A stretch of DNA of 18,934 nt from Myxococcales bacterium. Its GTDB lineage: Bacteria > Myxococcota_A > UBA9160 > SMWR01. Both the position numbers and the translations under genes were made by a program. The notes under the pieces were generated by a model that made no database searches, was not told the DNA's origin, and saw only the letters and a program-made list of their open reading frames with translations. Of this stretch, positions 1-12,291 are shown in pieces. Location: the NCBI GenBank assembly GCA_022572485.1, contig JACZVU010000036.1, positions 1-18,934 of the forward strand, read 5' to 3'. Within the stretch, counting starts at the first letter, position 1. Every line of letters begins with the position of its first letter.

Positions 1-200
1 GTTCGCCCGGGACAAAAAGGGCTCAGCAGGTCGTGGGGAATCTTGTACGCCCAGCCTTCGGGCGCAGCGATGACCTCGGGCGCAGCGGTGGTTTCGGGCG
101 CAGCAGGGGCCTCGCCCGCTGCGGTCGCGGTCGAGACACCGAGCAGAAGAGTCGCGAAGATCCCCGCAAAACCGAGCATTCGCAAGCGCACTTTCACCAC
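1..200 (-). CDS. CcmH-like secreted protein, N-terminal part only
   Basis: The gene reads leftwards and runs off the left edge, so only about 66 residues are visible. A signal peptide is clear: basic start (VKVRLR), hydrophobic core (LGFAGIFATLLLGV) and small residues (STATAA). A spacer of three AAPE units follows, then the segment YKIPHDLLSPFCPGR. That segment resembles the start of CcmH/CycL-type cytochrome c maturation proteins, which are periplasmic thiol proteins that present apocytochrome to the heme lyase. Start: GTG at 200 (or 197) lies 6 nt after a strong GGAGGG; ATG at 179 is possible but has no ribosome site. The start overlaps the stop of the upstream ATPase gene by 7 nt, so the two are probably co-translated. 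The thiol motif beyond the first Cys lies outside the window, so the family call is moderate. The signal peptide and the gene itself are much surer. Confidence 0.6.
   Translation of the reverse strand, partial: MVKVRLRMLGFAGIFATLLLGVSTATAAGEAPAAPETTAAPEVIAAPEGWAYKIPHDLLSPFCPGR
51..104 (-). repeat. Three 18-bp tandem units encoding AAPExx
   Basis: Positions 51-68, 69-86 and 87-104 are three head-to-tail 18-bp units with an invariant core (tcgggcgcagc). In the CcmH-like gene they encode AAPETT, AAPEVI and AAPEGW. The unit length is a multiple of three, so copy number can change without breaking the frame. It probably serves as a flexible linker just after the signal peptide. Confidence 0.75.
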
Positions 201-1081
201 GATTCACCCTCCGGCCCCGGCAGCTGGTAGGCGTCGACCCGAGCGGCGAGCTGCACCAGGGCACGACCTGCGACGGACTCTATCCCCTCAGCTTCGAGAA
301 ACGGGCGGCCTCGGTCGGCGGCTGCCGCGAGACCCGCGTCGAACGGGATCCGCGCCAGCACCTCCACGCCGAGACCCTCCACGACCCCGGTGTCGACAGT
401 CTCGCGAAACAGCGGCCCTTCCGCTCCGCATTTCGTACAAATCGACGTGCCGAAGTTTTCCACCAGCCCAATCAGTGGGAAACCGGCTTCGCGAGCGCGG
501 CGCAGAGAGCGCTCGACCGCCAGCAGGGCCACCTGCGTGGGGATCGCGACCACGAGCGCGGCGGCGATGCGCGGAAGCCATTGACCGAGCGCGGGCAGTC
601 GATCCGCACCGGGCGCGAGGTCGACCACCAGAAAATCGAGCTGCCCCCAAGCGGTGCGACCGAGCAGATCCCCTAACGCGGCCTGCTCGAGCGCGCTTCG
701 AACGCTCGCCGCTTCGCCCCGTGGGCCGTCCCAGTCCAGGGCCTGATTGCCTTGAAGAAAGAAATCCATGCTTTGAACGAGAAGCCCCTTCGGGCCAGTC
801 GCGGCCCGAAGCAGGCCATCGCCCGTGACCCGCACAGGATGGCCGCGCAGGCCGAGCATCTTCGACACCGATGGGCCGTTCAGATCCGCATCCAGCAAAC
901 CCACGCGACGGCCGAGCTGCGCGAGGCCATAGGCGAGGTTGACAGCCACGGCGCTCTTGCCGACGCCACCCTTGCCGCTCATCACCACCACGATGCGGTC
1001 GACTTCGGCGAGCCGTTCGGCGACGCGCGCGCGAACCACCTCGACATCTTCGACGAGTTGGGAAGCATCGAATCCAGACAC
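194..1081 (-). CDS. Mrp/NBP35-like P-loop ATPase (iron-sulfur carrier family)
   Basis: This 295-residue cytoplasmic ATPase belongs to the MinD/Mrp branch of SIMIBI proteins. The deviant Walker A is at residues 36-43 (GKGGVGKS), with D64-A-D66 in the A' region. The late C215-T-K-C218 pair matches the CxxC that Mrp/ApbC/NBP35 proteins use to hold a bridging Fe-S cluster, and it follows the GLVEN segment typical of Mrp. Family members assemble or carry Fe-S clusters for apoproteins. The usual switch DLPPGTGD reads D154-LAPGAD here, a divergence that could affect ATP hydrolysis. Start: GTG at 1081 with GGAGG at 1093-1097, an 11-nt gap that is slightly long. No N-terminal MIP18/DUF59 domain is present. 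The stop overlaps the start of the CcmH-like gene. The family is well supported; the target protein is unknown. Confidence 0.87.
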   Translation of the reverse strand: MSGFDASQLVEDVEVVRARVAERLAEVDRIVVVMSGKGGVGKSAVAVNLAYGLAQLGRRVGLLDADLNGPSVSKMLGLRGHPVRVTGDGLLRAATGPKGLLVQSMDFFLQGNQALDWDGPRGEAASVRSALEQAALGDLLGRTAWGQLDFLVVDLAPGADRLPALGQWLPRIAAALVVAIPTQVALLAVERSLRRAREAGFPLIGLVENFGTSICTKCGAEGPLFRETVDTGVVEGLGVEVLARIPFDAGLAAAADRGRPFLEAEGIESVAGRALVQLAARVDAYQLPGPEGESW

Positions 1082-3728: not shown

Positions 3729-4202
3729 TCAACCCCGCCCGCGCAACCGGCGCGGAATCTTCTCCAACAGAATCGACGCCGACCAGCGCGCGGCGCGCTG
3801 AATCGCGTCGAGGACATCACCCTGCCCCGACCAGTGAGAGCGCACGATGTCCGGGTGGACCTGGTTGAGAATTTTCGACAGGGCAGCGGATACGACCAGT
3901 AGATCATCCACGAGACCGATCGGGCCGACGAGGAGGCTCGGAATCAGGTCGATCGGAGAGAGCGCGTAACCAACGCCGAGCAGAGCGATCACCTTGCAGG
4001 AGATCGGAACCCGTGAATCGCGCAGGAGCCGCAGCAACAAGACGGTGAGATCAGGGAGCAGCAAGATCACATCACGGATTCCCAAAGCGGACCCTGGGCG
4101 CACCTTCACGACCCGCGCGCGCAGCCGATCGTAGAGCCGACGCTCGCGCGGATTCAGCTCGATGATGACAGATTCGTCTGCGGGTTCGATTCTTCCGTTC
4201 AA
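3729..4202 (-). CDS. YkvA/DUF1232 family membrane protein
   Basis: This 157-residue protein has the DUF1232 signature in its middle: KVIALLGVGYALSPIDLIP followed by a hydrophobic run and GLVDDLLVV. Two hydrophobic segments (about residues 44-62 and 68-107) suggest membrane association. The molecular role of the family is unknown. It is the last gene of operon A; its TTG start at 4202 overlaps the acyltransferase stop (TTGA), so translation is probably coupled. The C-terminus is rich in Arg. The TTG start is chosen for the overlap, with GAG-rich sequence upstream inside the acyltransferase. Its stop lies about 10 nt from the thioesterase stump on the other strand, so the rearrangement that cut that gene ended just outside this one. 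Confidence 0.85.
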   Translation of the reverse strand: MNGRIEPADESVIIELNPRERRLYDRLRARVVKVRPGSALGIRDVILLLPDLTVLLLRLLRDSRVPISCKVIALLGVGYALSPIDLIPSLLVGPIGLVDDLLVVSAALSKILNQVHPDIVRSHWSGQGDVLDAIQRAARWSASILLEKIPRRLRGRG

Positions 4203-5083
4203 CTGAAAATTCCCTCTCGTTCGCGACGGCCCCGCGCGAGCATCCCCGTGATCGTCGCCTTCACTTCCTCCACCTTGGCGTCGATGACCGCGTCCTCATC
4301 GGAGGCCTCCCCTTCGAAGTGCTGCGGTTCGCCAAAGTAGATGCGGTATTTGACCGGCAAGGGGAGCAACCCCAGCGGGCCGAGCCAGGGAAAGGTCAGC
4401 GTGATCGGCAGTGCAGGCGTACCGAACATGCGGGCGAGGCCCTCCAGGTTCGCGAAGCTCGGCTGCTGCTCTTCGGATCCAACGATGGCTACAGGTACGA
4501 TGGGCGTGTCCGTTTCGAGCGCCAAGCGCATGAAACCCGTCCCGAAGCGCTGCAGCCGATAGCGCTGCGAGAAGAGCTTGTTCATACCGCGAACGCCCTC
4601 GGGAAATGCGACGACGCATTCGCCGTTTTCCAGCATATGGATGCAATTTCGTGGCGTTCCGACCAGGGTCCCAGTGCGCGCGGCGAGAATACTCACCCAC
4701 GGCAGCTGCGGAATCCAATACTCGCCCATCGAACGCGCGATCCGGGGGGGTCGTGCCTCCATCAGCAACGCCAGCGCCAACATCGCCGCATCGAAGGGAA
4801 GCTGGCCCGCGTGGTTGGCGATCACGAGTACGCGCCCTTCGGGTAGGCGGTCGATGTCTGATACCTCGACGCGAAAGTAGTAGCGGTAGAGCAGCGCGAA
4901 GGGCAACAACACGCGGCGCATCCAAAGCGGGCTCATCCCGTACGCGTCGTAGCCGTACTCGTTGAGTTTATTGGGGACTTGGCTGAGGTGGTCGTCGATG
5001 ACCATCTGGAGGTTGCGGGCTCTCAGCGGCAGCATCGCTCCCGCAAAGTCGACCAACGCATCGAGTGCACTGGAGCGCGTCAT
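4199..5083 (-). CDS. Lysophospholipid/MGAT-like acyltransferase (copy A)
   Basis: This 294-residue PlsC-superfamily protein transfers an acyl chain to a glycerol or lysolipid hydroxyl at the inner face of the membrane. The catalytic block is N90-H91-AGQLPF-D98, with His and Asp six residues apart instead of the four in classical PlsC; I associate this spacing with the MGAT-like branch. The acceptor motif is F150-PEG-VRG, followed by PIVPVAIVG and the FPWLGPLGLLPLPVKYRIYFGEP block. A hydrophobic, aromatic stretch (LLPFALLYRYYF) precedes the active site. ATG at 5083 lies 3 nt after the SDR stop; the end overlaps the DUF1232 start by 3 bases. A paralogue with the same blocks is at 10082-11281. 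The substrate is not readable. Confidence 0.9.
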   Translation of the reverse strand: MTRSSALDALVDFAGAMLPLRARNLQMVIDDHLSQVPNKLNEYGYDAYGMSPLWMRRVLLPFALLYRYYFRVEVSDIDRLPEGRVLVIANHAGQLPFDAAMLALALLMEARPPRIARSMGEYWIPQLPWVSILAARTGTLVGTPRNCIHMLENGECVVAFPEGVRGMNKLFSQRYRLQRFGTGFMRLALETDTPIVPVAIVGSEEQQPSFANLEGLARMFGTPALPITLTFPWLGPLGLLPLPVKYRIYFGEPQHFEGEASDEDAVIDAKVEEVKATITGMLARGRREREGIFS

Positions 5084-5086
5084 CGC

Positions 5087-6004
5087 TCAGCTCCGCACGC
5101 TCTGCAGGGTCTCTTTGAGCCCGAACAGCGGCTGAAAACCCGTCGCATCCGCGAACCGCTCGCCGGAAAGCGTGATCGGATATTTGAGGAAGTCGATCGC
5201 GCCCGATGGATAGGCGCTCAGACCCATCCGGAACAGGCGTCGCAACAGCGGCCGCAAGATCGATTCGGGGATCGACCAGGCGTCGCCACCCGCCTCGCGG
5301 ATCGCAGTGCGCAGGGGAACTTCACCTGGGCCCGTGACGTTGAACACGCCTTGAAGGCGATGCTCGACGGCCCGCTCAATGGCTGCGCTCAGGTCTTCTT
5401 CGTGAATGAATTGCATGATCGGATCGAAACCCATCACGGTGGGAACGCGCCGCTCGCGTAGGTAGCGGCTGATCATCGAATGCGCGTAATACCCGAGCAC
5501 ATTCACAGGCCGGAGGACACAGGTCCGGATCTGCGGGTACCTCCAGAGGAACGCCGTGACCAGGGTATCGATCTCGACGCGGTCGCGGATTTCCGGATAG
5601 GAACGGCTCGCGGAAAGTGGAGAATCCTCGTCCATGTAGTAGGGGTTCTCGGGGGAGGCACCGTACACGTAGCCGCTCGAGAGCACGACCAGACTTTCCA
5701 CGCCGTTGTGAATGCAGTGATCGAGCAACTGCTTCGTGCCCATCACATTGACGTCGTGCCGCTCGCGCTCATCGATGCGAAAATCCTGAATGAAACCCAT
5801 GTGAACCACGCAGGCAGGTTTTTCCGTGCGGATCACGCCTGCGAATTTCTTCTTTCGCAGATCGACCCAATAGGGGCGAACCCCCCTCGGGTGCCCCTCC
5901 CATCGAGCCCGATCGACGCCACAAACCTCGAAACGCTCGCTGAGGCGACGGGCCAAGAGCCGCCCCTGGCCTCCCGCAATTCCGGTGATCAACACCTTTT
6001 TCAT
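5087..6004 (-). CDS. Extended SDR, NAD-dependent epimerase/dehydratase-like (copy A)
   Basis: This 305-residue Rossmann-fold protein has an intact cofactor motif T7-G-IA-G11-GQ-G14. S109-S110 followed by GYVYG lies where SDR catalytic Ser sits, and Y136 lies 26 residues later, the normal distance. The usual Lys four residues after Tyr is Arg (Y136-PEI-R140). The C-terminal half has the epimerase pattern LRPVNVLG, then FDPIMQFIHEEDLSAAI and GVFNVTGPG, so a nucleotide-sugar-like or lipid-linked substrate is plausible but unproven. ATG at 6004 follows GGAG with 7-nt spacing. It is the first gene of operon A (SDR, acyltransferase, DUF1232). A divergent hydrolase begins 104 bp away. A paralogue lies at 11278-12291. 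Confidence 0.9.
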   Translation of the reverse strand: MKKVLITGIAGGQGRLLARRLSERFEVCGVDRARWEGHPRGVRPYWVDLRKKKFAGVIRTEKPACVVHMGFIQDFRIDERERHDVNVMGTKQLLDHCIHNGVESLVVLSSGYVYGASPENPYYMDEDSPLSASRSYPEIRDRVEIDTLVTAFLWRYPQIRTCVLRPVNVLGYYAHSMISRYLRERRVPTVMGFDPIMQFIHEEDLSAAIERAVEHRLQGVFNVTGPGEVPLRTAIREAGGDAWSIPESILRPLLRRLFRMGLSAYPSGAIDFLKYPITLSGERFADATGFQPLFGLKETLQSVRS

Positions 6005-7160: not shown

Positions 7161-7943
7161 ATGAAGATCATGGTTTGCCTCAAGCAGGTTCCCCACCAAG
7201 ATGCGCGCCTCGATGTCCGACCGGATGGCACCTGGATCCAGGAAGACAACCTCAAATTCGAAATCAACAGCTACGACACCTATGCACTCGAGGAGGCCCT
7301 GCAAACCAAGGATGCAGGTGAGTGTGAGGTCATCGCGGTTTCGATCGGGCCGGATCGCGTCACTCAGGTGTTGCGAACCGCTCTCGGAATGGGCGCAGAC
7401 CGCGCCATCCACGTCAAGGATGATGAAGCCGAAGGTTCGGACACACTCGGTGTGGCAAAGATTCTCGCGGCCGTCGCGAAGCAGGAGAACCCGGACCTGA
7501 TCTACATGGGTTTGATGGCCGACGACGGCAACTTCGCAGCCGTGCCTCCGATGCTCGCCGAACTCCTGGGGATCCCCCACACCACGGCGGCCCTGAAGGT
7601 GAGCCGCGAAAACGGCAGCGTTCGGGTGGATCGCGAAATCGAAGGCGGTGCTCACGAAGTCGTGGAGCTGCAGAGTCCGTGCCTCATCGCCGTACAGACC
7701 GGACTCAATCAGGTTCGCTACGCATCCCTCAAGGGGATCATGGCCGCGAAGAAAAAACCCCTCGACGTCAAGACGATCGCCGATCTCGGATTGTCGGGCC
7801 AGGTAGGCGCCGCAAACGCCAAGATCGCGATCGAGAAGGTCAGCATGCCGCAAAAGGGCACAAGCGCTGAACTCGTCACCGGCTCCGCCGACGAAATGGC
7901 GGCCGGCCTGCTGAGCAAGATCAAGGAATTGGGGCTTCTCTAA
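7161..7943 (+). CDS. etfB: Electron transfer flavoprotein beta subunit
   Basis: This 260-residue subunit of the EtfAB heterodimer binds AMP and helps pass electrons from acyl-CoA and related dehydrogenases to ETF:quinone oxidoreductase. It begins MKIMVCLKQVP, followed by INSYDTYALEEAL, and has the beta-subunit block DDGNFAAVPPMLAELLGIP and the signature region VDREIEGGAHEVVELQSPCLIAV. Then comes NQVRYASLKGIMAAKKKPL, the usual recognition-loop/arm region. The glutamine usual before the DxD segment is Met here (GLMADDGN). ATG at 7161 is preceded by GGAGG (7146-7150) with 10-nt spacing. etfA follows after 93 bp, so the pair is one operon. No acyl-CoA dehydrogenase lies in the window, so the electron donor is elsewhere. 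Confidence 0.97.
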   Translation: MKIMVCLKQVPHQDARLDVRPDGTWIQEDNLKFEINSYDTYALEEALQTKDAGECEVIAVSIGPDRVTQVLRTALGMGADRAIHVKDDEAEGSDTLGVAKILAAVAKQENPDLIYMGLMADDGNFAAVPPMLAELLGIPHTTAALKVSRENGSVRVDREIEGGAHEVVELQSPCLIAVQTGLNQVRYASLKGIMAAKKKPLDVKTIADLGLSGQVGAANAKIAIEKVSMPQKGTSAELVTGSADEMAAGLLSKIKELGLL

Positions 7944-7957
7944 CCTCGGAACGTCCC

Positions 7958-7977
7958 CGCGGCCGCGACTTGCCGCG
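7958..7977. other. GC-rich inverted repeat between etfB and etfA
   Basis: CGCGGC (7958-7963) pairs with GCCGCG (7972-7977) around an 8-nt loop, and 7958-7967 alone is a 10-bp palindrome. It lies in the 93-bp gap between the etf genes, where an mRNA hairpin could adjust the relative expression of the two cistrons. There is no T-run. Confidence 0.3.
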
Positions 7978-8036
7978 AACCGGGCCCATCCGACAGGCGC
8001 CTAAAACTGGCAGGCACATAAACAGGGAGTGATCCG

Positions 8037-9008
8037 ATGGGCAGCATCCTCATCGTCGCAGAAATTCAAGGTGGCCAGATTCGCGAGTCCAGCTTCGAGC
8101 TGGCTACCTACGCGCAGAAGATCGCAGCCGCGACTGGGCGCGAGATCACGAGCGTCGTGCTCGGCCAAGACGTTGCTGACCTTGCGGACCATTTCGCGAA
8201 GAAGGGCGGTGGCAAGGTCTTCGTCACCGACGACGCGCTCTTGGCCAACTACTGTGTGGAGAGCGCGAATGCGGCGATCCGAGCGGCCATCGAGGCCTCG
8301 GGCGCCGACGTGATCCTGTTTTCCAATACGCCGAGCGGCTGGGACGTCGCTCCGCGCATCGCCGCTGGGCTCGATGCCGCTTTCGTGAGCGACTGCTCCG
8401 ATGTCGCTCAAGAGGAGGGTGCGCTCGTCTTCGAGCGGCGCATCTTCAACGGCCGACTGGGCGCACAGGTCCGCATCAAATCGGATCTCGTCGTCGCAAC
8501 CATGCAACCCGGAGGCACGGAGCCCTTCGGTGGCAGCACCGATGGAAGCGTCGTCAAACTCGAAGTCTCGCTCTCTTCCGACAAGGCGAAGTTCATCGAA
8601 ACCAAGATCGCCGAGAGCAAGGGCGTCGATCTGAGCAAGGCCGACATCATTGTTTCCGGCGGCCGGGGCATGGGCGCCCCAGAGAAGTTCAGTGGAATAC
8701 TCCAACCCCTCGCGGACGCACTGGGCGGCGCGCTGGGCGCTTCGCGCCCCGTCGTCGACGCGGGCTGGCTTCCCCATGAATACCAGGTGGGCTCCTCGGG
8801 CCAGATCGTGACCCCGAAGCTCTACATCGCCGCGGGCATCTCGGGAGCGATCCAACACCTCGTGGGCATGAAGGGTTCGAACTTCATCATCGCGATCAAC
8901 AAAGATCCGGACGCACCGATCTTCGAAGTCGCCGATCTTGGAGCTGTCGGTGACCTCTTCGAAATCATTCCCGCTCTCACCAAGGCAGTCCAACAAGCGA
9001 AGGAATAG
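8037..9008 (+). CDS. etfA: Electron transfer flavoprotein alpha subunit
   Basis: This 323-residue FAD-binding partner of EtfB has an N-terminal Rossmann-like domain (from [12 protein letters not shown]) and a C-terminal FAD domain. The latter contains S207-[17 protein letters not shown] (234-244), [13 protein letters not shown] and the family signature [13 protein letters not shown] (262-274), ending in [13 protein letters not shown] and the D-L-F helix. All FAD-contact blocks of group I ETFs are present, and length is normal. ATG at 8037 follows AGGGAG (8024-8029). It is transcribed with etfB. Nothing follows for 213 bp until operon B. Confidence 0.97.
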
Positions 9009-9221: not shown

Positions 9222-10085
9222 GTGTTCACTCGGCGGATAGCGATCATCAACGAGAAGGGTGGCAGCGCCAAAACAACACTCGTCTCGACGATTGGTGCGT
9301 ATCTCGCTCTTCACCGCGGTCGACGAATTCTCGCGATCGACATGGACCCCCAGGGCCAACTCGGCAAGGTGCTGGGCGTCGAGACGCGCGCTCGGGGTCG
9401 CTCGGCGATCAACCTGCTACTCGACTCGGTGCTGGGCGACGCTTCTTCGCTGGATTACAGCTACGAGAACGCTGCCAATCCCGCGTTTCGACCCACCTCG
9501 ACTCTCCCCATTTCGACCACGCGAATACCGCAGCTCGATGTGATCACAGCCAACAAATCCCTGGGGTTGTTTCCGATCCTCGAGGGTGACGAAGCGGATC
9601 CGACCGGGCGCTTGAGTCGCACGCTGGATTCCGCGCCGGAACTCGAGACGTACGACTTCATCCTCTTCGACGCGCCGCCGTCGTTCGGGCCGCTGACCCT
9701 TAACGTACTACGCGCCGCAACGGAAATCGTGATACCCGTCCCACTGACCTACCTCGCGTTAGACGGTTGCGCGGAGATCGTGCGCACGATCGCGACGGTC
9801 CGCAAACGCTACGACCACCCAAACCTTCACATTACGATGATCGTTCCGACCTTCTACCGGAGAACCAAGCTGGCAAACGAGATTCTCGATCGACTCAAGC
9901 AGCGCTTCCCGAAGGAAATTTCCCATACCGTCGTCGGCTATCACGTGAAGATCGACGAGGCGCAGTCCAGAGGGCTATCCATCTTCGAGTACGCTCCGAA
10001 AGATCGCTCAGCCTCCGTGATGGCAGAACTCGCCGAAGAACTCGAGCTTCGCGGTAAGCCCGGGCACGCTGGGAACCCCGCGTGA
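9222..10085 (+). CDS. ParA/MinD-type ATPase heading an acyltransferase operon
   Basis: This 287-residue ParA-family protein has the deviant Walker A K12-GGSA-K17-TT, keeping the signature Lys but with Ala where ParA usually has Gly. The A' motif is D40-M-D42-PQGQ, Walker B is LFD150-APPS, and the late segment KIDEAQSRGLSIFEYAP is typical of ParA/Soj. The basic YRRTKLANE segment corresponds to the region used for DNA contact in ParA proteins. Such ATPases position plasmids, chromosomes or protein clusters by cycling on the nucleoid. No ParB gene or parS-like array is beside it. The start is GTG at 9222 after a run of eight G. The stop overlaps the acyltransferase start (GTGA), so its partner is more likely a protein of this operon than a ParB. 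Confidence 0.93.
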   Translation: MFTRRIAIINEKGGSAKTTLVSTIGAYLALHRGRRILAIDMDPQGQLGKVLGVETRARGRSAINLLLDSVLGDASSLDYSYENAANPAFRPTSTLPISTTRIPQLDVITANKSLGLFPILEGDEADPTGRLSRTLDSAPELETYDFILFDAPPSFGPLTLNVLRAATEIVIPVPLTYLALDGCAEIVRTIATVRKRYDHPNLHITMIVPTFYRRTKLANEILDRLKQRFPKEISHTVVGYHVKIDEAQSRGLSIFEYAPKDRSASVMAELAEELELRGKPGHAGNPA

Positions 10086-11281
10086 GCGAAATCGAACCGC
10101 CCCGAGCCGTTGAAGAAATCGCAAACCCGCTCGCCGCGCCGGGCCGCGTCCTGGGCCACGATCCTTTCGACGATTTCGCCGATCCCGATCCGCTCGAGGA
10201 GCGGCTCGACCAGCTGGAAGCACGGCTCGCCAGCAGCCCGGCCGTCCGGCACCGCGCGCCGAAGATGACCGCAAAGCCGGTGACAGTCGGAACGGCGACG
10301 GAGGAGCCGTCGCTGGCAACAAAATGGACAACCCGGCGGGCCGATGCGCGCCGTGAAGAGGCTCTGCCAAGCCGCAACAATCTCGCGCGACTCTCTCGTC
10401 GACGCTGGTCGACCACTCCGCCTCTTGCGGAAATCGAACTTCCGCCGGCAAAGGGTTGGGTCGACCGCCTGCTGAACCCCAACGAAAGGCGTGTTCTCGC
10501 AGCGCTCGCGCACCTCGTCGAAGGCGATGCGCCGTACGATCGATTCGGTTACTCGCCGGAGGCGGTAAAGAGCGCATTCCCGTTCTTCCACGCGCTCTAC
10601 CGGTTCTATTTCCGCGTCCGAAGCGAAGGGCACGAACACATTCCAGTTGAGGGGCCCGTCGTGCTCGCCGGCAATCACGGCGGGCTCCTGCCCTTCGACG
10701 CCGCGATGGCGATCGTCGACGTCACGCTGCATACGGACCCCCCTCGGCTGATTCGCGCCATCGTGGATCGCTGGGCGGGCGCACTCCCCTGGATCAACAT
10801 CTTCTACGCGCGCCTCGGACAGGTCGTCGGAACGCGCGAGAACTTCGCCAAGCTACTCGAGGAGGGGCAGCTGCTCCTGGTCTTCCCGGAAGGCATCGAA
10901 GGCATCCGCAAGACGATCGCACACCGCTATCGGCTCCAGAAATTTCGAGTGGGCTTCATCGAGCACGCTTTGCGCGCGCGTGTGCCGATCGTTCCAGTAG
11001 CGTTCATCGGGAGCGACGACCAATCACCGATCCTCTTCGACATCAAACCGCTGGCCCGTAGAATCGGCGTTCCTGTTGTGCCGATAACGCCGACGTTTCC
11101 GTGGTTTGGCCCACTCGGCCTGCTTCCCTACCCCGTTTCGTATCGAATCATCTACGGAGAACCCCTCTGCTACCACGAGCGTTTTGGACCCGAGGCAGCC
11201 GACGACTCCCGCCTGGTCCGCTATCTCGCCAATCAGGTGCGGCGCACCGTTCAACTGCTGATCGATCGGAATCGCTCATGA
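10082..11281 (+). CDS. MGAT-like acyltransferase with long N-terminal extension (copy B)
   Basis: The protein has 399 residues. The C-terminal 240 match copy A block by block: GYSPE, ALYRFYFRVR, N198-H199-GGLLPF-D206 (again His and Asp six apart), RLGQVVGTREN, F268-PEG-IEG, PIVPVAFIGSDDQ and FPWFGPLGLLPYPVSYRIIYGEP. So it should be an active membrane-surface acyltransferase. Residues 1-150 have no counterpart in copy A. They are charged, with an acidic stretch (DPFDDFADPDPLEERLDQLEARL) and then Arg-rich sequence (RREEALPSRNNLARLSRRRW), and look disordered with a short helical stretch. A tail like this could contact the ParA ATPase encoded just upstream. GTG at 10082 overlaps the ParA stop, and the stop overlaps the SDR ATG by 4 nt. 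Substrate unknown. Confidence 0.92.
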   Translation: MSEIEPPRAVEEIANPLAAPGRVLGHDPFDDFADPDPLEERLDQLEARLASSPAVRHRAPKMTAKPVTVGTATEEPSLATKWTTRRADARREEALPSRNNLARLSRRRWSTTPPLAEIELPPAKGWVDRLLNPNERRVLAALAHLVEGDAPYDRFGYSPEAVKSAFPFFHALYRFYFRVRSEGHEHIPVEGPVVLAGNHGGLLPFDAAMAIVDVTLHTDPPRLIRAIVDRWAGALPWINIFYARLGQVVGTRENFAKLLEEGQLLLVFPEGIEGIRKTIAHRYRLQKFRVGFIEHALRARVPIVPVAFIGSDDQSPILFDIKPLARRIGVPVVPITPTFPWFGPLGLLPYPVSYRIIYGEPLCYHERFGPEAADDSRLVRYLANQVRRTVQLLIDRNRS

Positions 11282-12291
11282 CCCACATTCTCGTCACCCA
11301 CGCCGACGAGCCGATCGGGCGCAGGGTGATCAAGAATCTCTACCACGACCCGGATGTCGAAGTCATTTTCGCTCTCGGCAGCGGCCCGCCGCCGCGCAAG
11401 TTCGACGCCTATCTCGCGGGCAGCGACCCGAGGGTGACCTATACGCGGTTGGACCTCACCAAGCACCGCCCGACCCACGATCTCTTTCACTCTGCTCTGT
11501 TCCGAGCCGCCGAGATCGACACCGTCGTCTACGTGCCGCGCCACGGCGCGGGCGCATCGGTAGCAGCACCGCTGCTCGGTGGCCTGTCCGAGCGAACCGC
11601 CGAGAGCCGCCTGCTCCTTCAGCACTGCCTCGAAACCCGTATGATCCGGAATCTGATCGCGATCGGGAGCGCGTTCGTCTACCGCCTTCCACCGGGCAAT
11701 GCGAATCACCTGAGCGAAGACAGCGAACTCAATCTCGACCCGGACGTCATGCCGGAGATTCGCGCCTGGATCGATTGCGACATGATCTTCCACAGCGAAG
11801 TCCACAACGATCGACTCCGCGTCGTGTTGCTGCGTGTTCCGACCGTCGTAGCCGCGGGCGGCTATGTTTATCTGCACCCCTCACTGGCCGGTCGACCCGG
11901 TTCACGGGTGCGCGCCCTCGGATTCGATCCAATCTGCGCGCTCGTTTCCGACAAGGATGTCGCGCGTGCGGTCCGGGCTGCGATCAAGGCTCCGGTTTCG
12001 GGGATCTTCAACATCGCGGGGGGCGAAGCGGTACCGCTATCGGTGCTCGCCCGCTGGACGGGTCATACGAGCATCCCCCTGCCCGGCCCGTTGCTCAGCA
12101 TGGTCGATATGGCCGAGCGAGCGCTCGGCATCGAGTCCCGCCTCGGAACTGGCGGCGGAGCGCACCTGCGCTACGGCTTCACGCTCGACACCGACCGCGC
12201 CGCCGCGGAACTGGGATTCCGCTGCCAATACCGGATCGGCCTGGCACGTGCCGGCGATGGCGCCCTGCGCCTCGAGACCGCCTCGGTCTGA
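11278..12291 (+). CDS. Degenerate SDR/epimerase-like protein (copy B), probably non-catalytic
   Basis: This 337-residue protein is homologous to copy A in the Rossmann half (ILVTH...IGRRV), the SAFVYR strand, the PEIR segment, LRVPTVVAAG, the shared GFDPI block, DKDVARAV and SGIFNIAGGE. The cofactor loop is broken: T7-H8-A-D-E11-P-I-G14, so two of the three conserved Gly are gone. The catalytic Tyr is Met158 and the Lys position is Arg162. It probably cannot act as a normal oxidoreductase and may serve as a scaffold or ligand-binding subunit. ATG at 11278 overlaps the acyltransferase stop (ATGA). It is the third gene of operon B and ends before a 259-bp gap. Alternative: a divergent enzyme using another chemistry. 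Confidence 0.87.
   Translation: MTHILVTHADEPIGRRVIKNLYHDPDVEVIFALGSGPPPRKFDAYLAGSDPRVTYTRLDLTKHRPTHDLFHSALFRAAEIDTVVYVPRHGAGASVAAPLLGGLSERTAESRLLLQHCLETRMIRNLIAIGSAFVYRLPPGNANHLSEDSELNLDPDVMPEIRAWIDCDMIFHSEVHNDRLRVVLLRVPTVVAAGGYVYLHPSLAGRPGSRVRALGFDPICALVSDKDVARAVRAAIKAPVSGIFNIAGGEAVPLSVLARWTGHTSIPLPGPLLSMVDMAERALGIESRLGTGGGAHLRYGFTLDTDRAAAELGFRCQYRIGLARAGDGALRLETASV

What the first reader, a model, noticed from the sequence alone, without database searches (positions are those of the whole stretch)
9222..12291. Operon B: ParA-type ATPase translationally fused to an acyltransferase and an SDR
Seen: three genes joined by GTGA and ATGA overlaps, with no ParB gene and no parS-like repeats nearby. 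The ATPase has full ParA motifs (with Ala in Walker A), the acyltransferase has a charged extension of about 150 residues absent from copy A, and the SDR has lost catalytic residues. Known: orphan ParA ATPases position cargo complexes through partners with a basic or disordered N-terminal tail. Inference: the acyltransferase extension recruits the ATPase, which positions a lipid-modifying complex or lipid body. I know of no described system of this layout.
Basis: partly seen in the sequence, partly recalled or inferred. Interest (0 to 1): 0.75.

Follow-up and report, generated by a model that had tools for sequence, protein, structure and literature searches.

The report
ParA-tagged acyltransferase positioning operon
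Three overlapping genes encode a ParA-type positioning ATPase, a lipid acyltransferase whose floppy N-terminal tail carries a short tag (LGxDPF) that seems to mark it as that ATPase's cargo, and a degenerate partner enzyme; the same tag sits on quite different proteins next to related ATPases in other phyla.

Summary
The operon is real: ParA (9222-10085), acyltransferase (10082-11281), SDR (11278-12291), with GTGA and ATGA overlaps. It is conserved: in a class of 90 genomes 43 carry this ParA, and the acyltransferase follows directly in 40; in the other 3 the contig appears to end.

The acyltransferase tail is mostly disordered but keeps a tag, LGx[DN]P[FL]: exact in 30 of 35 ParA-adjacent acyltransferases read in that class, degenerate in 5, missing in 5 of 5 relatives read from ParA-less genomes. 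In Myxococcus-type genomes an unlinked long acyltransferase carries it: 41 of 41 readable ParA+ genomes, 4 of 16 ParA- genomes. One ParA-less lineage kept the tail but lost the tag. In Nitrospinota and Nitrospirota, 8 of 8 related ParAs are followed by the tag, on a CheW-domain protein in the 7 with a complete gene, recalling ParC/ParP.

Best reading: the tag hands the acyltransferase to a ParA positioning machine. No contact was tested; a lipid-body cargo is plausible, not shown. The SDR looks like a conserved pseudoenzyme. A search of held papers for six spellings of the tag found no ParA link.

The parts
9222..10085 (+). ParA-type ATPase, GTG start, 287 aa
   Evidence: lies in a ParA subfamily that a tree parts from 11 generic ParAs with 100/98 support
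9255..9278 (+). deviant Walker A, KGGSAKTT (residues 12-19)
   Evidence: residue 16 is A or T in close relatives and A, C or G in distant ones
10082..10085 (+). GTGA overlap of ParA stop and acyltransferase start
10082..11281 (+). acyltransferase AT_B, 399 aa, PlsC-like fold
10151..10168 (+). tag LGHDPF (residues 24-29), consensus LGx[DN]P[FL]
10190..10234 (+). short predicted helix after the tag (residues 37-51)
10235..10405 (+). variable, low-confidence linker (residues 52-108)
   Evidence: pLDDT under 50 over 55-108; variable length in A2
10673..10699 (+). NHGGLLPFD (residues 198-206), a widened NHX6D acyltransferase motif
   Evidence: N198, H199, G201, L203, P204, F205, D206 invariant in A2
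11278..11281 (+). ATGA overlap of acyltransferase stop and SDR start
11278..12291 (+). SDR_B, extended-SDR fold, degenerate NAD and catalytic motifs
4199..5083 (-). copy A acyltransferase (AT_A), no tail and no tag
5087..6004 (-). copy A SDR (SDR_A), PF01370, TGxxGxxG kept
3729..4202 (-). DUF1232 protein overlapping AT_A
   Evidence: beside AT_A/SDR_A in several relatives too

Best explanation
This is a ParA/MinD-type positioning system whose cargo adaptor is the acyltransferase itself. Shown by sequence comparison: the three genes overlap and are conserved; the ATPase belongs to a distinct ParA subfamily; the acyltransferase has an N-terminal tag LGx[DN]P[FL], a mostly disordered linker and a C-terminal PlsC-like domain; the tag recurs on CheW-domain neighbours of the same ParA subfamily and is missing from most acyltransferases read in ParA-less genomes. 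Inferred: the tag binds the ATP-bound ParA and probably stimulates its ATPase, so that the acyltransferase, and whatever membrane patch or lipid body it sits on, is moved, spaced or held at a site. Inferred more weakly: the SDR is a non-catalytic partner subunit, and the cargo is a lipid or storage-granule assembly.
For: Cis conservation: AT_B directly follows ParA in 40 of 43 ParA+ genomes of a 90-genome class. Tag: exact in 25 of 27 ParA-AT loci with a readable tail and in 30 of 35 class genomes read, the rest degenerate (the sets overlap). Trans partner: 41 of 41 readable ParA+ Myxococcota genomes have a tagged long acyltransferase (2 of them MGNDPF) against 4 of 16 ParA- genomes; Fisher p 2.6e-9, not corrected for kinship. 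Co-loss: G208, G181 and G212 lack ParA and their long tails lack the tag; their sister G153 lacks ParA but has it, as if ParA went first. Other cargo: 8 of 8 CheW-type loci; control, 0 of 12 generic ParAs from the same search has a tagged downstream gene (L118-L129). Precedent: ParP has an N-terminal ParC-binding domain, a proline-rich linker and a CheW-like C-terminus (passages of PMC5706961).
Against: No physical contact was tested or modelled. L051 has SDR-ParA-acyltransferase without the tag. Four ParA- genomes keep a tag or near-tag (G153, G133, G145; G078 reads LGSNPF). The 12 tagless rows make only about four groups on the tree, and one (G196) falls among the short acyltransferases, so the comparison partly sets paralogues against each other. 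Described ParA partners use positively charged N-termini (passages of PMC10241942 and PMC7993993); this tag is not basic. The stretch of Soj that I recall as DNA-contacting is only partly kept (VGYHVKI against IPRNVRL), so nucleoid binding is unproven.
Confidence: 0.72

Rival explanations
1. ParA is an enzyme switch, not a mover: tag binding by ATP-bound ParA turns the acyltransferase on or off, or gates its membrane access, with no spatial transport.
For: The same co-conservation and tag data would follow; in the window's group ParA is encoded next to the enzyme.
Against: The same tag on CheW-domain proteins, whose described ParA link, ParC/ParP, is array positioning (passages), favours positioning over an enzyme-specific switch.
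Confidence: 0.15
2. The tag binds a third factor (for example a pole marker or a chaperone) that happens to be used by genomes with this ParA.
For: No direct ParA contact has been shown; 4 of 16 ParA- genomes keep a tag or near-tag; L051 has the ParA but no tag.
Against: In loci found by ParA alone the tag is on the next gene, be it acyltransferase or CheW, and in one lineage the tag is missing only inside a group that already lacks ParA.
Confidence: 0.1
3. An ordinary chromosome or plasmid partition ParA that happens to sit upstream of lipid genes.
For: The closest solved structures by sequence are Soj/ParA.
Against: No ParB family among 16 scanned window proteins and no parS-like site; the tree parts it from 11 generic ParAs with 100/98; adjacency to the acyltransferase in 40 of 43 genomes.
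Confidence: 0.03

Closest known systems
ParC/ParP chemotaxis-array positioning (Vibrio); the L055-type ParA + CheW pairs look like it
   Same: ParA-like ATPase plus an adaptor with an N-terminal binding region, a long linker and a C-terminal cargo domain (PMC5706961 passages)
   Different: here the cargo domain is an acyltransferase and an SDR is coupled; whether Vibrio ParP carries LGxDPL was not examined
McdA/McdB carboxysome positioning
   Same: the N-terminal 20 residues of McdB are necessary and sufficient for binding its ParA-type ATPase (PMC12204374, a preprint; passages)
   Different: three lysines matter in McdB; the tag here is LGx[DN]P[FL]; the partner here is an enzyme
PomX/PomZ (Myxococcus xanthus)
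   Same: a 22-residue N-terminal peptide stimulates the ParA/MinD ATPase (PMC7993993 passages)
   Different: charged peptide with K13 and R15 essential; division-site cargo; whether any ParA of this report is PomZ was not tested
PhaM/PhaF/PhaH and AlgP granule tethers
   Same: attach storage granules to the nucleoid (PMC13052382 passages)
   Different: [quoted passage not shown] the review's table gives ATP dependence as unknown
PlsC-type acyltransferases paired with an SDR (copy A; mycobacterial galE2/Rv0502, a pairing I recall)
   Same: acyltransferase domain and SDR neighbour
   Different: copy A has no tail, no tag and no ParA; motif here is NHX6D, not HX4D

Membership tests
ParA/MinD (A/D) ATPases | deviant Walker A xKGGxxK[T/S] (as used in PMC10241942) | tested here: met
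   NEKGGSAKTT; K12 G13 G14 and K17 T18 T19 invariant in A1; PF13614, E 2.8e-30
ParA/MinD (A/D) ATPases | ATP-dependent dimer and binding to nucleoid DNA or membrane | not testable with these tools
   the Arg before TKLA is kept, the IPRNVRL region reads VGYHVKI; no assay possible
ParA/MinD (A/D) ATPases | a partner protein whose N-terminus binds the ATPase | tested here: inconclusive
   comparative support for LGx[DN]P[FL], no binding test
ParABS partition systems | ParB gene and parS sites nearby | tested here: not met
   no ParB family in the 16 window proteins scanned; 0 parS-like sites within 3 mismatches; beyond the window not searched
ParC/ParP chemotaxis positioning | CheW-like (AIF) domain in the partner | tested here: not met
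   the window's partner is PF01553; CheW partners were seen beside related ParAs elsewhere
PlsC/LPLAT acyltransferases | family profile and fold | tested here: met
   [not shown]
PlsC/LPLAT acyltransferases | HX4D active-site motif (named in a passage of PMC10593935) | tested here: not met
   H199 to D206 is HX6D, invariant in the 29 rows of A2, AT_A included
Extended SDR (NAD-dependent epimerases) | fold | tested here: met
   [not shown]
Extended SDR (NAD-dependent epimerases) | TGxxGxxG and YxxxK (recalled) | tested here: not met
   THADEPIGRR and VMPEIRAW at these places; no Pfam family at E 0.01

The most novel reading that the evidence does not exclude
One ParA subfamily reads a transferable address tag, LGx[DN]P[FL], that evolution has fitted to different cargoes in different phyla (acyltransferases, in cis or in trans, and CheW-domain array proteins). 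In Myxococcota this gives an ATP-driven system that positions and partitions a lipid or storage-granule assembly.
Probability: 0.35. Interest if true: 0.85.

Novelty: new variant of a known kind. Interest (0 to 1): 0.72.

Why it matters
Many ParA/MinD ATPases are called orphans because the partner is unknown (PMC10241942 passage). A short tag that points to the partner from sequence alone, even when it is encoded elsewhere in the genome, makes the question directly testable, in Myxococcus xanthus among others. It also suggests lipid acylation as a new kind of cargo next to chromosomes, arrays, carboxysomes and flagella, and bears on how storage inclusions are spaced, where a 2025 review leaves the need for ATP open (PMC13052382 passages).

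Tried and rejected
Genome-wide tag scans: the strict DNA pattern (V-L-G-x-D-P-[FL]-x-R) hit once in the 9.1 Mb M. xanthus genome, at the long acyltransferase, and twice in the 13.8 Mb Archangium genome, one of them about 1 kb upstream of an acyltransferase hit, the other not looked into; it hit nothing in the two CheW genomes, whose tags lack that R. A looser pattern over 146 genomes drowned in matches (its reversed control gave similar numbers) and its listing was cut; not used for counts.

The tag letters are not unique to tails: the SDRs have a kept internal stretch LG[FYH]DP[ILM], far from the N-terminus, also in copy A as MGFDPI; I read it as an SDR feature and did not count it. One search also gave one tag-like hit in a frame 5.9 kb upstream of ParA in L021. 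Background: of 840 non-overlapping ORFs picked in L001-L080, 7 had the tag in the first 120 aa, all ParA neighbours; the picking was crude, since it missed most of the tagged genes known.

ParA-tail complex: I looked for loci with ParA and partner in one frame, so that a natural read-through could be modelled as one chain; none was found and I built no joined chain. Negative control with other CheW proteins is small: of 12 loci fetched, 5 distinct CheW frames were recognised by my signature, none with the tag. Literature listings for ParA with acyltransferase and Myxococcus, ParA with lipid droplet and triacylglycerol (10 of 218 listed), and ParA family ATPase with acyltransferase and gene neighborhood showed nothing on this system; six spellings of the tag occur in one paper, on seed-meal peptides. 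The library lacks most subscription papers. Copy A as an equivalent system: rejected, no tail, tag or ParA. Promoter, terminator and repeat scans around the operon gave nothing telling.

Rows dropped or not read. In some searches, G260, G256 and G286 have ParA without a linked AT_B: G256 and G286 lie at contig ends, and G260's ParA matches L015, whose contig ends 173 bases after ParA. Of the 40 linked genomes 35 were fetched. Of 7 ParA-less class genomes with an AT_B-like hit, G247 and G272 start at contig edges and were not read. In one search, 5 ParA+ regions (G200, G136, G188, G140, G174) were cut upstream and left out; 39 of the 85 ParA+ genomes with such an acyltransferase were not fetched. 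Two regions picked as short (G165, G113) proved to be the tagged long class and were counted there.
Full report

Is it conserved. A scan of GTDB contigs with a ParA alignment found 146 relatives and kept the best 80. Thirty of these are 52% or more identical to the window's ParA (L001-L029, L040). AT_B follows in 27; in the other 3 (L015, L023, L040) the contig ends within about 310 bases of ParA. SDR_B is matched after AT_B in 24 of the 27 (two of them partial); L002 and L019 end first, and L026 shows no SDR_B match although its contig goes on. In one class of 90 genomes, 43 have this ParA at E 1e-60 or better; by coordinates AT_B lies on the same strand within 300 bases downstream in 40, and the other 3 appear to be contig ends. 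More distant relatives (L030, L031, L051, L245) have the order SDR-ParA-acyltransferase.

The tag. Aligning AT_B homologues showed a strongly kept piece in the tail, LGxDPF, followed by DPFxERLDxLE and a linker of very variable length. Of the 27 loci with a readable tail, 25 have exact LGxDPF; L016 and L019 keep only RDPF. In the class set I read 35 of the 40 linked acyltransferases: 30 exact LGx[DN]P[FL], 5 degenerate; in 5 of 5 relatives read from ParA-less genomes of the class it is missing, though these are only 50-57% identical and may be another paralogue (this set overlaps the former). Distant triplets: both acyltransferases downstream of ParA in L030, and those of L031 and L245, carry it; L051 does not.

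Same tag, other cargo. In Nitrospinota and Nitrospirota the related ParAs (4, 4) are each followed by a gene whose N-terminus reads LGx[DN]PL (IGRNPL in L117) and then DSIW: 8 of 8 (L055, L080, L115, L116, L117, L241, L242, L243). In 7 the gene is complete and has a C-terminal CheW domain (PF01584); in L080 the contig ends first. None of the 12 generic ParAs returned has a tagged gene just downstream. Known ParP has an N-terminal ParC-binding domain, a long proline-rich linker and a CheW-like C-terminus (passages of PMC5706961). The shared tag on partners of different families is the strongest argument that it addresses the ATPase.

Partner in trans. Myxococcaceae have a ParA about 44% identical to the window's with no acyltransferase beside it. 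I asked whether a tagged acyltransferase exists elsewhere. In M. xanthus it does: MAKGVLGNDPFKRGAAS, then a long Ala/Lys/Pro-rich tail and the acyltransferase domain; the strict DNA form of the tag occurs once in that genome. On the same 146 Myxococcota genomes, 88 have the ParA at E 1e-60 or better, and 85 of these have a matching acyltransferase at E 1e-50 or better, against 20 of 58 without ParA (my counts from the tables). I fetched 80 acyltransferase regions. Readable ones from ParA+ genomes: 41 of 41 have the tag, 39 as LGxDPF and 2 as MGNDPF. From ParA- genomes: 4 of 16 (G153, G133, G145, and G078 with LGSNPF). Fisher p 2.6e-9, without correction for kinship. Of 20 regions picked as short acyltransferases, 18 lack it and 2 turned out to be the long, tagged class. 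On the tree the 12 tagless rows form about four groups, one row (G196) among the short acyltransferases, so the effective number of independent losses is small.

A natural experiment. In that tree G153 (no ParA, tag kept) is sister to G208, G181 and G212 (no ParA, no tag), and the four sit beside ParA+ G209 (100/99 and 100/96 support). G212 begins MAKGTPRASES where G153 has MAKGVLGNDPFQRGAAARSPES; G181 and G208 begin MARSRATPPRAS. The long tail stays, the tag is gone. G133 and G145 are likewise sisters of ParA+ genomes (G115, G169). So three of the four exceptions look like recent ParA losses, or gaps in assemblies, in which the tag has not decayed.

The ATPase subfamily. In a tree of 55 ParAs, 44 of this subfamily (L051 and the trans type included) part from 11 generic ParAs with 100/98 support; the CheW type is one clade. 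The generic set came from one phylum sample. Residues that mark the subfamily include E11, K49, K112, T176, D181, E185, R213, D245 and Q248, candidates for a tag-binding site.

Function. Published work has short N-terminal partner peptides that bind or stimulate ParA-type ATPases (McdB, PomX; passages of PMC12204374 and PMC7993993), described as positively charged. I infer that LGx[DN]P[FL] plays this part here, so that the acyltransferase rides on, or is spaced by, the ParA. Whether the cargo is a membrane site, a lipid body or a granule is open. Hints for storage: DAGAT profile matches over the cut-off in the L030, L031 and L245 acyltransferases (24.7, 23.0 and 26.2 bits against 22), below it in M. 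xanthus (16.4) and none in the window; and a gene with a PHB_acc_N-type signature in 42 of 46 myxobacterial-type loci (two such genes confirmed with Pfam). The window has no such signature.

Limits.

Noticed in passing
L032-L079 and L130-L159: The myxobacterial-type ParA sits beside a gene with a PHB_acc_N-type signature in 42 of 46 and 23 of 30 loci (short flanks and shared genomes in the second set); a link between this ParA and storage granules is untested.
   Followed up: partly
window 3729-6004 (-): DUF1232, AT_A and SDR_A form a second, ParA-free acyltransferase/SDR cluster that lies upstream of the ParA operon in several relatives too.
   Followed up: partly
window 7161-9008 (+): Electron-transfer flavoprotein genes (PF01012, PF00766) lie directly upstream of ParA, and an ETF match lies upstream of ParA in several relatives.
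   Followed up: no
window 9222-10085, residues about 73-95: The window's ParA group has an insertion of about 20 residues that most distant relatives lack.
   Followed up: no
SDR_B residues about 214-219; L030, L031 SDRs: The SDRs carry an internal LG[FYH]DP[ILM] stretch that resembles the tag by letters; taken as an SDR feature, not tested further.
   Followed up: partly
L041: A record titled Comamonas sp. KCTC 72670 carries a myxobacterial-type ParA locus, so the record may be mislabelled or contaminated.
   Followed up: no
L030 (801-1430, 5110-6363, 6384-7613): One contig carries three acyltransferase matches around SDR-ParA; the two genes downstream of ParA both start with the tag.
   Followed up: partly
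window 194-1081 (-): A second P-loop ATPase, of the Mrp/NUBPL kind (PF10609).
   Followed up: no
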